From assembly GCF_016862175.1 (NCBI RefSeq), contig NZ_BOML01000014.1, positions 1 to 64,000 on the forward strand: a stretch of DNA of 64,000 nucleotides. Direction: 5' to 3'. The notes under the pieces are model-generated. The model was not told the DNA's origin, ran no database searches, and saw only the letters and a list, made by a program, of their open reading frames with translations. A program made the position numbers and the translations under genes. This document shows positions 56,914 to 62,206 of the stretch, one piece after another; positions within the stretch are counted from its first letter, which is position 1; every line of letters starts with the position of its first letter. This DNA comes from Paractinoplanes durhamensis (lineage in GTDB: Bacteria > Actinomycetota > Actinomycetes > Mycobacteriales > Micromonosporaceae).

Positions 56914-58341
56914 TTACCAGTTGACCGCGATGTATTTCGACTCCAGGTATTCGAGGAGACCCTCGTGGCCGCCCTCGCGCCCGATGCCCGACTGCTTGAC
57001 CCCGCCGAACGGCGCGGCCGGGTCGCTGACCAGGCCACGGTTGAGGCCGACCATGCCGGCCTCGATCGCCTCGCTCACCCGCAGGCCGCGAGCCAGATCC
57101 TGGGTGAAGACGTAGGCGACCAGGCCGAACTCGGTGTCGTTGGCGTAGCGGACCGCCTCGTCCTCGCTGGTGAAGGTGACGATCGGGGCGACCGGCCCGA
57201 AGATCTCCTCCTTGAGGATCGGCGCGTCGCCCGCGATGCCGGTCAGCACGGTCGGCGGGTAGTAGAAACCCGGCCCGTCCGGCCGGGTGCCGCCGGTGAC
57301 GGCCGTCGCCCCCGCGGTCACCGCGTCGCGGACGAGACTGTCCACCTTGGCCACGGTGTCCTCGTTGACCAGCGGCCCGACCTGGGTGTTCGCGTCGGTG
57401 CCCGGGCCGACCCGCAGGCCGGCCATCCGCTCGGCCAGCCGCCGCGAGAATTCATCGGCGACCGAGGCCTCGACGTAGAACCGGTTGGCCGCGGTGCACG
57501 CCTCGCCGCCGTTGCGCATCTTGGCGATCATCGCGCCGTCCAGCGCCGCGTCGAGGTCGGCGTCCGCGAACACCAGGAACGGCGCGTTGCCGCCCAGCTC
57601 CATCGACGTGTTGATGACATTTTCCGCGGCCTGGGCGAGCAGGATCCGGCCGACCTCGGTCGACCCGGTGAACGACACCTTGCGCACCCGCGGGTCGGCC
57701 AGCATCTTCGAGACGACCTTGCCCGAACTGCGCGACGGCAGCACGTTGACGACGCCCGCGGGCACGCCCGCCTCGGCCAGGATCGCCGCCATGGCGAGGG
57801 CGGTCAACGGGGTGTCGCTGGCCGGCTTGAGGACGACGGTGCAGCCTGCGGCAAGCGCCGGCCCGATCTTGCGGGTGGCCATCGCCGCCGGAAAATTCCA
57901 GGGCGTGACGAGTACGCACACCCCGACCGGCTGCCGCACCACCAGGATCCGGTTGGCCCCGCTCGGCGCGGTGTTCACGATGCCCTCGCCGCGGACGGCC
58001 TCCTCGGCGAACCACCGGAAGAACTCGGCCGCGTACGTCACCTCGCCCTTCGCGTCGACCAGGGCCTTGCCGTTCTCCAGCGAGATCAGCCTGGCCAACT
58101 CGTCGGCGCGCGCACTCATCAGCTCGAACGCCCGGCGCAGATGCTCACCGCGGACCCGCGGAGGCGTCGCCGCCCAGGCCGCAGCCGCCTCCGCCGCCGC
58201 GTCGACCGCCGCGACCGCGTCGGCCTCACTGCCGTCCGCGACGGTGGCGATGACGTCGCCGGTCGCCGGGTCGAGCACATCGAAACGATTCCCCGAGGAC
58301 GCGGGGACCCACTTACCACCGATGAAGAGTTCAGTTTCCAC
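56914..58341 (-). CDS. NAD(P)-dependent aldehyde dehydrogenase, succinate-semialdehyde type
   Basis: A 475-residue aldehyde dehydrogenase that oxidises an aldehyde to the acid with NAD(P)+. 'TPWNFPAAMATRKIGPALAAGCTVVLKPAS' cofactor region, Glu248 in 'MELGGNAPFLVF', catalytic Cys282 in 'NGGEACTAANRFYV' and 'EEIFGPVAPI' are intact. 'GVVNVLPSRSSGKVVSKML' and 'PFGGVKQSGIGREGG' favour the succinate-semialdehyde dehydrogenase (GabD) group. GTG start at 58341. Monocistronic, ended by a strong terminator. Confidence 0.92.
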   Translation of the reverse strand: METELFIGGKWVPASSGNRFDVLDPATGDVIATVADGSEADAVAAVDAAAEAAAAWAATPPRVRGEHLRRAFELMSARADELARLISLENGKALVDAKGEVTYAAEFFRWFAEEAVRGEGIVNTAPSGANRILVVRQPVGVCVLVTPWNFPAAMATRKIGPALAAGCTVVLKPASDTPLTALAMAAILAEAGVPAGVVNVLPSRSSGKVVSKMLADPRVRKVSFTGSTEVGRILLAQAAENVINTSMELGGNAPFLVFADADLDAALDGAMIAKMRNGGEACTAANRFYVEASVADEFSRRLAERMAGLRVGPGTDANTQVGPLVNEDTVAKVDSLVRDAVTAGATAVTGGTRPDGPGFYYPPTVLTGIAGDAPILKEEIFGPVAPIVTFTSEDEAVRYANDTEFGLVAYVFTQDLARGLRVSEAIEAGMVGLNRGLVSDPAAPFGGVKQSGIGREGGHEGLLEYLESKYIAVNW

Positions 58342-58393
58342 AACCCCAGCATGGTCCTGCTCCGGCGCTCCCGCCACGCTTCGTGCCAGGTGT

Positions 58394-58399
58394 TACCGT
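58394..58399 (+). promoter_or_regulatory. -10 hexamer of NACHT gene (leaderless)
   Basis: TACCGT exactly 7 nt before the ATG at 58407. Confidence 0.5.
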
Positions 58400-58406
58400 C
58401 CGCCGC

Positions 58407-61400
58407 ATGAGGTCCCGGGGGATGTCCTTCGCCGACGCGGTCCGCCTGCTCGACGGGGATTCGGAGATCGTCGATCGACTCGGCTCACTGGCCGGGATAG
58501 CCGCCGGGACGGCGACGGTGGCCAGCAAGGGCACCGTCGACTACTTCGCGCTGCGGGATCAACTGATGCGGTGGGGACACCGCCTGGTCGGTTCCTGGCA
58601 GGAGCGGGTGCGCGGGCTGGGCCGGTTCGACCGGACCGACCGGATCCTCGCCGCGCACAGCGTCCTGGTGATCATCTCCTTCGACGAGGCCCTCGACGAC
58701 TGGTTCAAGCACCGTGGTCACGACCTCGCCTCGGCCGAGCTGACCAGGGCCGAACAGGCAGCCATCGCCGCGGGTGGCCCGCTCGCCGATTCCTACGCCG
58801 GCATGATCGCCGGCCTGCTGGATCGCCCGCCGCCCTACCCGGAGCCGACCGTGCCCTTCGAGGACGTCCGGGCGGAACTGCACCGCTACTTCCTCGACTG
58901 CACAGGGCGCACCGCGCTCTTTCTCGACGGCCTGAAGGCCTTCGAGCGCGAGCTGCCCGCAATCAAGGGCCCGGCCGTCGCCAAACGCGCGATGCGGCGG
59001 TACGAGGAGTCGTACCGGCGGCTGGCCGCCGAGATCCCGGAGTTCCGGCTGTGGTCGGCGATGATCGACGCGCAGGCCACCCGAGAGCTGATCCGCACGG
59101 CCATCGACGCCCTGGGCGATCGGCGGGAGCCGGTGGACGAGGTACCGGCCGGGCTCGTCCGGCGATACCAGGCCCGGCTGGAGAAACCGATCCTCAGCAA
59201 CGCCGGCGCGGCCGGTGACCTGGTGCTGCCGACGCTGCGCGAGGGCTATCGCGAACCGGCCGGGACGGTCGTGTCGACCACCCCGACCTCGCTACCGGCC
59301 GTCGACGGCTGGTGGGCCGAGCACGGCACGCCGACCGCCGACGTCCAGGACTTCCTGTTCGCCGCGCTCACCGGGCCCGGCGCCGGCGAGGGCCCGATCG
59401 TCGTGCTCGGCCACCCGGGGTCGGGCAAGTCGGTGCTCACCCGGGTGCTGGCGGCCCGGCTGTCCGGCGCCGGCTTTCTTCCGGTACGCGTCGAGCTGCG
59501 CAACGTGCGCGCCGACTCGCCGGTGCAGCGGCAGATCGAGGAGGGCCTCTACCTGATGCTCGGCGAGCAGGTCCGCTGGCCCGAGCTGGTCCGCCGGGCG
59601 GGCGACGCGCTGCCGGTGGTGATGATGGACGGCTTCGACGAGCTGCTGCAGGCCACCGGCCAGAACTGGGCCGACTACCTGGAACAGCTGCAGGAGTTCC
59701 AGGAACGGGAGGCCGAGCTCGGCCGCCCGCTGGCCGTGGTGGTGACCAGCCGGACCGTGGTCGCCGACCGGGCCCGCTTCCCCACCGGCACCACCGTCGT
59801 ACGGCTCGACCCGTTCAGCGACGAGCAGGTCGCCGACTGGCTGGCGGTGTGGAACGCCAAGAACGCGGCCGGGCTGGCCGCCCGAGGCCTGCGACCGCTC
59901 CCGGCCCGGGTGGCGCTGGCCCATCGCGAGCTGGCCGGCCAGCCCCTCCTGCTGCTGATGCTGGCCCTCTACGACGGCCGCGAGAACCAGCTGCAGCGCA
60001 GCGGTGGCACGCTGCGCCGGATCGAACTGTACGAGCGGCTGTTCCAGGATTTCTTCGTGCGCGAGGTGGACAAGCTCGGCGAGGACCGGGACACCGCGGT
60101 GGCCACCGAGTGGCGGCGGCTCGGCGCGGTGGCGGTGGCCATGCACAACCGCGGCCGCGACGTGATCCTCGAGCCGGAGCTGGAGGACGACCTCCGGCAC
60201 CTGCTCAGCATCGAGGACCGGACGCCCCGGCCGGCCGCACACCGGCCGCTGACCGCCGGACAGCTGCTGGTCGGCCGGTTCTTCTTCGTGCACGAGTCGA
60301 AGGCCAGCCAGGACACCGGTGGCGCGCAGCGCAGCTTCGAGTTCCTGCACGCCACCTTCGGCGAGTTCCTGGCCGCCCGGCAGATCATCACGGCCCTGGT
60401 GGACCTGGCCGAGGACCGGGCCCGGCTGCGCCGGACCGCCACCCTCGACGCCGGCTACTTCCACGCCCTGACGTCGTTCACCACCCTGACCCGGCGGGCC
60501 CCGCTGTGGGAGTTCGGCCAGGGCATGATCGCCGGGCTGACCGCGGAGGAGCGGGCGCAGTGCCGCGATCTCGTCATGGAGCTGCTGCCGGAGGCCGGCT
60601 ACCCGCATCCGCGCTGGACCTTCGCCGAGTACGAGCCGGATCGGCGCACCGTCGCCCAGCGGCAGGCGGCGTTCTCGGCCAACCTGGTGAGCTTCGCGGT
60701 GCTGCTCAGCGACGGCCCGGTCGACGTCACCTCGCTGGTCGGCGAGCCGGTGGCGGTCAACTGGCGGCAACTCGCACTGCTCTGGATGAGCCAGCTGGAG
60801 CCGGAGGACGGCCGGCGGCTGTGGCAGGCGTTCCGGGTGGAGTGGGATCTGACCGCCGCGCCGACCCAGCTCCGGATCCGGGTCGAGGACGGCACCGACG
60901 TCCCGGTCGTGCCGTCCCTGCCGTGGCCGCCGGAGGGCCGGCCGCCGACCCAGGACGGCCTCCCGCCCGGCCGGGACCTGGCCATGCCCGCCGAGTCGGA
61001 CACCGGGCGGCAGCTGCGGAAGTCCGCGTTCGCCCAGACCGCTATCGACAACCGCGAGTTCGTCTACGCGCTGATGCCGTTCTGGCGCGAGTTCGGGGAC
61101 ATCGAATACCGGGGCGACCACACGAAGAACGAGTCGAGCGCCTGGCTGGTCCTCGAGTTGGCGGTCGGCAGCTACGCGACCGGGACGATCGGCTCGCGGA
61201 CCGACGTCTACGTGGACGCGTTGTCCCGGCCGATTCCGCGCCTCCAGCAGAACGCCATGGACCGCTTCGTCCAGGAATGCCGAGCCGTCGACCTGACGGT
61301 GCTCGAAGAGCTATACCTCCGCGAGCACATCGCGCGGGTCCGGGCGGCCGCGGCCGCGACGCAGCACGCCGCCGCCGACGACTTCCGGTACACGGTCGGC

Positions 61401-61439
61401 GCCGTGTTCGAGCTCCGCACCGGCCGGCGGCTCGCCTAA
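58407..61439 (+). CDS. NACHT-family STAND NTPase with N-terminal helical (NNH) domain
   Basis: A 1010-residue protein. N-terminal helical region, about 1-300: 'SFADAVRLLDGDSEIVDRLGS', 'LVGSWQERVRGLGRFDRTDRILAAHSVLVIISFDEALDD', like NNH domains that accompany bacterial NACHT modules (I suspect NNH7). NACHT domain: P-loop 'LGHPGSGKSVLTR' near 335-342, Walker B 'VVMMDGFDELLQ' near 402-413, sensor 'VVVTSRTVV', and a winged/helical extension with 'FEFLHATFGEFLAARQI', typical of NACHT ATPases. The C-terminal 350 residues have no LRR, TPR or WD repeats that I can see. Bacterial NACHT proteins protect against phages. Stands alone; overlaps the thioesterase gene by 4 bp. Start at 58407 by leaderless promoter; ATG at 58422 (GGGGG before it) is an alternative. 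Confidence 0.85.
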   Translation: MRSRGMSFADAVRLLDGDSEIVDRLGSLAGIAAGTATVASKGTVDYFALRDQLMRWGHRLVGSWQERVRGLGRFDRTDRILAAHSVLVIISFDEALDDWFKHRGHDLASAELTRAEQAAIAAGGPLADSYAGMIAGLLDRPPPYPEPTVPFEDVRAELHRYFLDCTGRTALFLDGLKAFERELPAIKGPAVAKRAMRRYEESYRRLAAEIPEFRLWSAMIDAQATRELIRTAIDALGDRREPVDEVPAGLVRRYQARLEKPILSNAGAAGDLVLPTLREGYREPAGTVVSTTPTSLPAVDGWWAEHGTPTADVQDFLFAALTGPGAGEGPIVVLGHPGSGKSVLTRVLAARLSGAGFLPVRVELRNVRADSPVQRQIEEGLYLMLGEQVRWPELVRRAGDALPVVMMDGFDELLQATGQNWADYLEQLQEFQEREAELGRPLAVVVTSRTVVADRARFPTGTTVVRLDPFSDEQVADWLAVWNAKNAAGLAARGLRPLPARVALAHRELAGQPLLLLMLALYDGRENQLQRSGGTLRRIELYERLFQDFFVREVDKLGEDRDTAVATEWRRLGAVAVAMHNRGRDVILEPELEDDLRHLLSIEDRTPRPAAHRPLTAGQLLVGRFFFVHESKASQDTGGAQRSFEFLHATFGEFLAARQIITALVDLAEDRARLRRTATLDAGYFHALTSFTTLTRRAPLWEFGQGMIAGLTAEERAQCRDLVMELLPEAGYPHPRWTFAEYEPDRRTVAQRQAAFSANLVSFAVLLSDGPVDVTSLVGEPVAVNWRQLALLWMSQLEPEDGRRLWQAFRVEWDLTAAPTQLRIRVEDGTDVPVVPSLPWPPEGRPPTQDGLPPGRDLAMPAESDTGRQLRKSAFAQTAIDNREFVYALMPFWREFGDIEYRGDHTKNESSAWLVLELAVGSYATGTIGSRTDVYVDALSRPIPRLQQNAMDRFVQECRAVDLTVLEELYLREHIARVRAAAAATQHAAADDFRYTVGAVFELRTGRRLA

Positions 61440-62206
61440 CCCAGCGGCCGGACGGTGAGGATCTGCTGGGCGGAGCCGACCGGGCCGTGGACGTCGTGCA
61501 GGATCGTGCTGGTCAGACCCTGGCCGGTCGGGCCGAACGTCACCGACGTGTCCAGGCCGGTCCAGCGACCCTCGGGCTGCCGGTGCAGGTGGACGGTCAG
61601 GTCGACGTTGGGGAACATCCACTCGGTCGGCTCCTGCCGCACCGCGATGCCGTTGGCCGTGTCGACCAGCGCCAGGTAGGTGGCGAGCGGGCCGACCGGC
61701 TCCCCCGCCACCAGGTCGAGCTCGCTGGTGATCCAGGCCGACGTGCGGCCGGGCACCGCATCGGCCGGCCGCCGCACCTCGATCGACGCGATGTAGCCGC
61801 CGGTCCACAGCTCGGCCATCGGCCACGGTTCGACCGACTCCGGCGGGGGCAGCCGGTCGATCGGCGTGCCCGCCACCGCGGTGGTGTCGTGGGCGGCCAG
61901 GAACCATGCCCGGGCCCGGGTCACCGCGCGGCCGGCGATGGTGACGGTCGCTTCGAGCAACTCGATGGTGCGGCCCGGACGGATCGTCTCGACGGTGATC
62001 TCGCACTCGTCCAAGGCGATCTTGCCGAGGATGTCGTAGCTGATCCGGGCCAGGACGAGGCCGTCGGACCGGTGCCGGTCGATCGCGTGCGCGATCAGGC
62101 CGCCGAGCGGGCTGAAATGCTGCTCGTCGGTGCGCCAGGCGCCGCCGACGTGGGCGGTGGGCTTGTAGCTGTGCTCGCCGACCCGCTCGAAGTAGCTTTC
62201 CCTCAT
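61436..62206 (-). CDS. Acyl-CoA thioesterase-like (double hot-dog) protein
   Basis: A 256-residue protein resembling TesB-like thioesterases: 'RTDEQHFSPLGGLIAHAIDR', 'VLARISYDILGKIALDECEITVETIRPGRTIELLEATVTIAGRAVTRARAWFLA' (first hot-dog), and 'AWITSELDLVAGEPVGPLATYLALVDTANGIAVRQEPTEWMFPNVDLTVHLHRQPEGRWTGLDTSVTFGPTGQGLTSTILHDVHGPVGSAQQILTVRP' (second, with 'FPNVDLTVHLHR' catalytic-type segment). Substrate unknown. Lies 10 bp after the TetR gene and shares its operon. Confidence 0.85.
   Translation of the reverse strand: MRESYFERVGEHSYKPTAHVGGAWRTDEQHFSPLGGLIAHAIDRHRSDGLVLARISYDILGKIALDECEITVETIRPGRTIELLEATVTIAGRAVTRARAWFLAAHDTTAVAGTPIDRLPPPESVEPWPMAELWTGGYIASIEVRRPADAVPGRTSAWITSELDLVAGEPVGPLATYLALVDTANGIAVRQEPTEWMFPNVDLTVHLHRQPEGRWTGLDTSVTFGPTGQGLTSTILHDVHGPVGSAQQILTVRPLG

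What the first reader, a model, noticed from the sequence alone, without database searches (positions are those of the whole stretch)
58407..61439. Solitary NACHT/NLR-like protein with a helical N-terminal domain and unrecognised C-terminal sensor
Seen: intact Walker motifs, NACHT-type Walker B (DGFDE), an NNH-like N-terminus and a 350-residue C-terminus without known repeats. Known: bacterial NACHT proteins protect against phages. Inference: the N-terminal helical domain is the output and the C-terminus a new type of sensor. Leaderless, constitutive-looking promoter and lack of partner genes fit a single-gene defence system.
Basis: partly seen in the sequence, partly recalled or inferred. Interest (0 to 1): 0.65.

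Follow-up and report, generated by a model that had tools for sequence, protein, structure and literature searches.

The report
Bacterial NLR-like receptor with variable tail
The gene encodes a bacterial relative of animal NLR immune receptors, one of several copies per genome in Actinoplanes-like soil bacteria, with a conserved switch and a fast-changing tail that probably senses invaders; the kind is known, but what this one detects and how it acts are not.

Summary
The observation largely holds. Window 58407-61439 (+) encodes an intact 1010-residue protein. Residues 4-220 match Pfam NNH7 (E 3e-55). The rough model's best PDB matches are NOD2, NLRC4 and NLRP9 (E 1e-6 to 1e-4), mainly over 261-812. 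The main NACHT residues are invariant in 40 of 40 homologues. So it is an NNH7-NACHT (NLR-type) protein.

Corrections: the proposed 350-residue sensor starts too early; the variable part is about 812-1010. The gene is solitary at its locus but has five copies in the genome, one frame-broken, and homologues in 33 of 36 genus genomes. Its neighbours are mostly metabolic; it is not in a recognisable defence island. It is not core: a relative has an empty site.

New evidence: in 15 of 16 non-overlapping homologue pairs the region from residue 801 is the least conserved, with pN/pS 1.5-3.9 times that of NACHT. Two close orthologues fall to 43-70% nucleotide identity there. This supports a diversifying sensor; relaxed constraint is not excluded.

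How NNH7 acts is unresolved; a membrane-disturbing bundle is a weakly supported first guess. New member of a known kind; antiphage function is inferred.

The parts
58407..61439 (+). NNH7-NACHT (NLR-type STAND) gene, 1010 aa
   Evidence: open frame; NNH7 and NACHT matches; NLR folds
58394..58399 (+). TACCGT, -10-like hexamer 7 nt before the ATG; no Shine-Dalgarno-like sequence follows
   Evidence: TACCGT/TACCTT at 6-7 nt also in G008, G012, G019 and G047 homologues
58416..59066 (+). NNH7 domain, residues 4-220: putative output domain
   Evidence: PF22738, E 3e-55
59397..59843 (+). NACHT nucleotide-binding region, residues 331-479
   Evidence: PF05729 below cut-off; NLR folds
59409..59432 (+). 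Walker A GHPGSGKS, residues 335-342
   Evidence: sequence; invariant positions in 40 of 40
59616..59645 (+). Walker B VVMMDGFDEL, residues 404-413
   Evidence: sequence; D408, G409, D411, E412 invariant in 40 of 40
59844..60836 (+). helical remainder of the NLR switch (HD1/WHD/HD2-like), about residues 480-810; boundaries approximate
   Evidence: fold match spanning 261-812 in a fifth or more of the rows
60339..60371 (+). EFLHATFGEFL, residues 645-655, with invariant H648 (WHD histidine of NLRs, role recalled)
   Evidence: invariant in 40 of 40
60840..61436 (+). fast-diverging C-terminal segment, residues 812-1010: candidate sensor
56914..58377 (-). flanking aldehyde dehydrogenase; left edge of the insertion site
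   Evidence: PF00171; synteny
61436..62206 (-). flanking acyl-CoA thioesterase; right edge of the insertion site
   Evidence: PF20789/PF13622; synteny

Best explanation
The gene encodes an intracellular NLR-type STAND receptor. At rest it is a monomer with ADP in the NACHT pocket. The fast-diverging C-terminal segment (about 812-1010) binds a ligand, most likely a protein of an invader; NACHT exchanges ADP for ATP, the protein oligomerises through its NACHT/WHD/HD2 module, and the clustered NNH7 domains act as the output that kills or arrests the infected cell. Shown here: domain order, intact switch residues, multi-copy and variable distribution, tail hypervariability. Inferred from what is known of NLR/STAND proteins: ADP/ATP switch, oligomerisation, invader sensing, cell arrest. 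Guessed: that NNH7 works by disturbing the membrane (about 0.4, given the rest) rather than as an adaptor or a nuclease.
For: NNH7 match; eight best Foldseek matches to the model are NLR chains; switch residues invariant in 40 of 40; five copies in the genome, 33 of 36 genus genomes, empty site in a relative; region from 801 least conserved in 15 of 16 pairs with pN/pS 1.5-3.9 times that of NACHT; close orthologues G476 and G008 drop to 43-70% nucleotide identity there. Papers: STAND antiviral proteins use variable C-terminal sensors and N-terminal effectors (PMC10907252, passages); bacterial NACHT proteins protect against phages (PMC12169576, passages).
Against: No phage test. No PADLOC or NCBIfam model matches beyond the P-loop. 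Neighbours are mostly metabolic. The structure model is rough (mean pLDDT 54.3; query TM-scores 0.16-0.26 for the eight NLR rows; Z 6.9 at best and tied with clamp loaders). Tail pN/pS rarely exceeds 1. The NNH7 hydrophobic segment is not unusual by shuffling in 34 of 39 members.
Confidence: 0.55

Rival explanations
1. The tail is not a ligand-binding surface but a weakly constrained end that drifts; sensing is done by another part or by a host protein.
For: Tail pN/pS is mostly below 1 (0.31-1.04 in 16 pairs); pS also rises in the tail; tails are shorter in two orthologues (972 and 963 aa), and the G047 copy's tail match lies in another frame. bNACHT25 senses phage through host DnaJ (PMC12169576, title and passages).
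Against: 36 of 40 tails have a significant relative within the set; W840 and P891 are 90% or more conserved; the identity drop starts near residue 812 and ends at the stop codon.
Confidence: 0.2
2. NNH7 is an adaptor: on oligomerisation it recruits an effector encoded elsewhere in the genome.
For: No enzyme signature was found in NNH7; metazoan NLRs use helical Death-like adaptors, and helical adaptors occur in bacterial conflict systems (PMC8195603, passages).
Against: No partner gene next to the copies examined; homologues live in other families and genera, so a partner elsewhere would have to travel separately.
Confidence: 0.2
3. NNH7 is a HEPN-like RNase activated by clustering (R79-x4-H84).
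For: R79 is present in every covered row and H84 in 37 of 40 rows, at the start of a predicted helix.
Against: H84 is replaced by Ser in two paralogues and by Tyr in a same-locus orthologue; no HEPN family matched.
Confidence: 0.08
4. It is a STAND regulator of metabolism or development rather than an immune receptor.
For: Neighbours are mostly metabolic; actinomycetes use STAND proteins such as AfsR as regulators (PMC10936776, search listing only).
Against: No DNA-binding domain matched; presence varies and neighbours differ between copies; the tail diverges quickly.
Confidence: 0.15

Closest known systems
Pfam NNH7 (PF22738), NACHT N-terminal Helical domain 7
   Same: N-terminal domain over 4-220 with 188 bits against a cut-off of 27; followed by NACHT as the family's name says
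   Different: Nothing in the region examined; the family has no function that I found in print
Bacterial NACHT (bNACHT) antiphage proteins such as bNACHT02/12 and bNACHT25/32
   Same: Central NACHT switch; single protein; in bNACHT02/12 no readily discernible effector domain (PMC12169576, passages)
   Different: bNACHT25/32 carry a nuclease effector and NCH1, bNACHT02/12 a short C-terminal SNaCT domain; these were not compared residue by residue here, and activity of the window protein is untested
Animal NLRs (NOD2, NLRC4, NLRP9)
   Same: Best fold matches of the switch
   Different: No leucine-rich repeats found; the N-terminus is NNH7, not CARD or PYD
Avs and other PADLOC defence proteins
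   Same: STAND-type single-gene architecture (recalled); Avs4 appears as a weak fold match (E 0.033)
   Different: No PADLOC model beyond weak P-loop matches
BELL / HeLo-type cell-death domains
   Same: Helical domain tied to NLRs in filamentous bacteria, with a hydrophobic helix in BELL (PMC7889193, passages)
   Different: BELL sits on a separate neighbouring protein linked by amyloid motifs; here NNH7 is fused to the receptor, and no homology was shown

Membership tests
NNH7 (PF22738) | Match over the curated cut-off | tested here: met
   188.3 bits against 27; 39 of 40 homologues match at E 0.01 or better
NACHT / NLR-type STAND | Pfam NACHT (PF05729) over its cut-off | tested here: inconclusive
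   23.1 against 26.7 bits, E 7.5e-5; 31 of 40 homologues match at E 0.01 or better, best 3.6e-7
NACHT / NLR-type STAND | Intact Walker A and NACHT-type Walker B (DGxDE) | tested here: met
   invariant in 40 of 40
NACHT / NLR-type STAND | NLR-like NBD-HD1-WHD-HD2 fold | tested here: met
   eight best Foldseek matches are NLR chains, E 1.1e-6 to 1.1e-4, with low TM-scores; VIA Z under 8 and tied with clamp loaders, but NLR rows align more residues
NACHT / NLR-type STAND | ATP-dependent oligomerisation | not testable with these tools
   needs protein
Antiphage defence protein | Protects against phage | not testable with these tools
   needs a phage challenge
Antiphage defence protein | Lies among defence genes | tested here: not met
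   62 flanking genes of 16 loci: commonest Pfam families mostly metabolic (25 of 82 families shown); PADLOC families shown (25 of 42) each match 2 of 62
Named PADLOC system (Avs and others) | Match to a system's model beyond the P-loop | tested here: not met
   only mad8 at E 0.0033 over residues 328-360 for the window protein; mad8 in 11 of 40 homologues at E 0.01 or better
EruA (NF058535) | NCBIfam equivalog cut-off | tested here: not met
   17.4 bits against 1000, residues 328-354 only
BELL / HeLo | Membrane-type hydrophobic N-terminal helix on a helical bundle | tested here: inconclusive
   longest uncharged run starts at 20-50 in 34 of 39 members, but only 5 of 39 have p under 0.05 by shuffling and 10 of 39 reach mean hydropathy 1.6 there, against 12 of 39 after residue 300
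HEPN RNase | Invariant R-x4-6-H (motif recalled) | tested here: not met
   H84 replaced in 3 of 40 rows, one of them a same-locus orthologue

The most novel reading that the evidence does not exclude
NNH7-NACHT proteins form an NLR repertoire expanded and diversified within one bacterial genus: near-universal, up to about six loci per genome, the window's copy a single-gene indel between housekeeping genes and others likewise outside recognisable defence islands, with one homologous C-terminal sensor that diverges much faster than the switch. That would be a bacterial counterpart of plant and fungal NLR repertoires, with sensors diversified in place rather than swapped, of a kind that searches by neighbouring defence genes miss.
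Probability: 0.4. Interest if true: 0.65.

Novelty: new member of a known kind. Interest (0 to 1): 0.42.

Why it matters
It gives an NLR subfamily without a published function a concrete anatomy: which 200 residues to exchange to test ligand specificity, and which orthologue pair (nearly identical switch, different tail, same locus: G476 and G008) makes the experiment clean. It also shows NLR-type genes sitting as single genes among metabolic genes, where defence-island searches do not look.

Tried and rejected
Rejected: the C-terminal 350 residues as one sensor (the fold match reaches about 812-830). Wholesale domain swapping of tails: 36 of 40 tails (from residue 841) have a significant relative in the set; the nearest tail belongs to the same protein as the nearest core in 19 of those 36, so some exchange is possible but no clear case was seen. 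A shared regulon from the CCATNATGG motif seen before many homologues' starts: in the own genome the pattern before ATG occurs 8 times against 3 for the reversed control, at none of the five NLR starts; 4 of the 8 following frames are under 50 codons and the other 4 were not examined further. Carriage by phages: no match in the phage records and none of 230 candidate stretches in one of eight allowed viral-contig scans. Defence islands: the 25 of 42 PADLOC families shown each match 2 of 62 neighbours; I take these for the two protein kinases, which is an inference. Tail profiles against PDB: the window's group gave one match at E 0.95; 25 paralogues gave TAL effectors at E 0.0014 and 0.0068 and designed helical repeats from 0.033, which hints at helical repeats in paralogues but may be composition. 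The N-terminal structure job (mean pLDDT 54.6, residues 1-75 under 50) was too poor to use; no match at E 0.001 or better, no Z of 5 or more; HEPN and HeLo folds were not recognised among the rows shown, which carries little weight. Strict TANNNT before the start is not enriched (8 of 40 against 39 of 316). Papers: no held paper contains 'NNH7' or 'NACHT N-terminal helical'; the 2023 Cell paper on bacterial NLR-related proteins (recalled) is not held.

Limits of the counts: match numbers include pieces of one gene, and at most 13 candidates per genome were scored; by position G008 and G028 have about six loci each. The synteny check used 30 of the 47 ALDH matches, with up to 1,500 bp on each side. 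The neighbour scan used 62 of 78 listed flanking genes: those of L035, L050, L051 and L054 were dropped as near-duplicates of other loci, after L036, L040 and L046 were left out when the list was made. The 40-protein set keeps distinct open frames of at least 800 aa and leaves out shorter or broken copies, but one member (L005/L044) lacks its NNH7 part because of the frame break. The 16 pairs share no protein but do share ancestry. The upstream octamer was found in the same data in which it was counted.

Full report
What is there. The ORF at 58407-61439 (+) is intact and 1010 residues long. Its N-terminus is Pfam NNH7 (E 3e-55, residues 4-220), and a NACHT match below the curated cut-off covers 331-479. 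In 40 aligned homologues the main P-loop and Walker B residues and H648 of EFLHATF never vary. That this histidine is the NLR winged-helix histidine that contacts ADP is recalled, not tested. AlphaFold2 with the four sequences allowed gave mean pLDDT 54.3, best in parts of the NACHT, WHD and HD2 regions and under 50 throughout 837-1010. Foldseek's eight best PDB matches to that model are NOD2, NLRC4, NAIP/NLRC4 and NLRP9 chains, E 1.1e-6 to 1.1e-4, with low TM-scores (query-normalised 0.16-0.26); the next is Cdc6 at 9.4e-4. VIA-align gives Z 6.9 at best, with clamp loaders tied; the NLR rows align about 300-390 residues against about 200-215 for the clamp loaders, and a fifth or more of the rows span 261-812. 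So residues up to about 810-830 are output domain plus NLR switch, and about 200 residues remain as candidate sensor.

Where it occurs. The genome (10.5 Mb) has five copies. One, on contig C36 near 168-170 kb, is frame-broken: its NNH7 match lies in another frame from the rest. Of 36 genomes of the genus, own included, 33 have a match; 2 of 24 genomes from the rest of the order do. NNH7 passes its cut-off in 3 of 396 genomes drawn from the phylum, own included, and in none of 14 control genomes. The genus contains Actinoplanes subtropicus and Paractinoplanes rishiriensis: their contigs have the same lengths as contigs of G012 and G460 (inference from length). Four plasmid-collection records carry relatives, three of Streptomyces (annotated hypothetical protein) and one of Nonomuraea, the last being chromosome-sized; phage records have none.

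The locus. ALDH and the NLR gene stand side by side in 5 of 30 ALDH loci examined, own included. In G008 and G476 the thioesterase follows, as in the window; in the two named relatives no thioesterase was found in the flank. In G453 the ALDH and thioesterase matches lie 68 bp apart with no NLR gene. The gene therefore behaves as a one-gene indel. Among 62 flanking genes of 16 loci the commonest Pfam families shown are glycosyl hydrolase 31, ALDH, DUF3500, DNA alkylation repair and protein kinase, each in 2-3 genes (25 of 82 families shown). PADLOC matches concern 2 of 62 genes in every family shown and include kinase models (25 of 42 shown). No defence island is recognisable, and the gene is not core.

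Start of the gene. TACCGT lies 7 nt before the ATG and no Shine-Dalgarno is visible; similar hexamers stand at 6-7 nt in the G008, G012, G019 and G047 homologues, two of them at other loci. Across the family SD-like sequence occurs at 2 of 40 starts against 104 of 316 other called genes (Fisher p 8e-5). TANNNT alone is not enriched (8 of 40 against 39 of 316, p 0.21). Many paralogues carry instead CATN[AG]TGG 3-10 nt upstream (18 of 40 against 0 of 316, pattern chosen after looking). Leaderless transcription is likely; constitutive expression is not something the sequence shows.

The variable tail. Same-locus orthologues show a conserved switch between two faster ends. For G476 against G008, pN is 0.02 in NACHT, 0.10 in NNH7, 0.21 in 801-900 and 0.49 in 901-1010; pS rises too, from 0.19 in NACHT to 0.50 and 0.44 in the tail, so replacement by recombination is possible as well as rapid substitution. 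On the nucleotide level identity in 120-base windows is 82-96% up to residue ~810, apart from one window of 76% in NNH7, falls to 43-70% up to the stop codon, and returns to 88-91% just after it; the thioesterase itself has one window of 72.5%. Among 83 pairs with NACHT identity above 72%, 16 non-overlapping pairs were taken; in 15 the region from 801 on is the least conserved, the exception being a pair whose linker is lower. Its pN/pS (0.31-1.04) is 1.5-3.9 times that of NACHT (0.20-0.49) in all 16; one of these pairs rests on a short tail. ALDH and thioesterase beside the gene give 0.10-0.13 and 0.26-0.42. This is what a recognition surface under pressure would show; relaxed constraint is not excluded.

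The output domain. R73, R76 and R79 are present in all 39 covered rows; H84 is replaced in 3 of 40, which speaks against an R-x4-H nuclease. The longest uncharged run starts at residues 20-50 in 34 of 39 members, but only 5 of 39 are unusual by shuffling (the window's own has p 0.126), and 10 of 39 reach a membrane-like mean hydropathy of 1.6 there, against 12 of 39 somewhere after residue 300. I rank a membrane-disturbing bundle first because NLR-linked helical bundles with a hydrophobic helix are known in filamentous bacteria (BELL; PMC7889193 and PMC9815663, passages read) and no enzyme family matched, but this is a guess.

Judgement. It is a new member of a known kind, in a subfamily without a published function that I could find (the library holds open-licence PMC papers only).

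Noticed in passing
upstream of homologue starts, e.g. L014, L020, L053, L029, L030: A near-palindromic CATN[AG]TGG, often CCATNATGG, stands 3-10 nt before the start in 18 of 40 homologues and 0 of 316 other genes (pattern chosen after looking), with no conservation further upstream; it may be an unusual leaderless -10 or an operator. The window gene itself has TACCGT instead.
   Followed up: partly
G000 contig C36 near 167978-170216 (L044/L005): Fifth copy in the own genome is frame-broken: NNH7 and the rest lie in different frames. Assembly error not excluded.
   Followed up: no
L053 (G035) and L054 (G009): Two NLR genes stand in tandem on one strand, about 50-75 bp apart, in both genomes.
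   Followed up: no
L048 (G047) and other genomes: Homologues with pieces in different frames or with stops, such as G047 (tail piece in another frame) and G033 (two TAG), which suggests birth and death of copies.
   Followed up: no
L038 (Stenomitos frigidus), L039 (Synechococcales MAG): Cyanobacterial sequences match only the NACHT part (residues 313-660, 26% identity), so the switch is shared more widely than NNH7.
   Followed up: no
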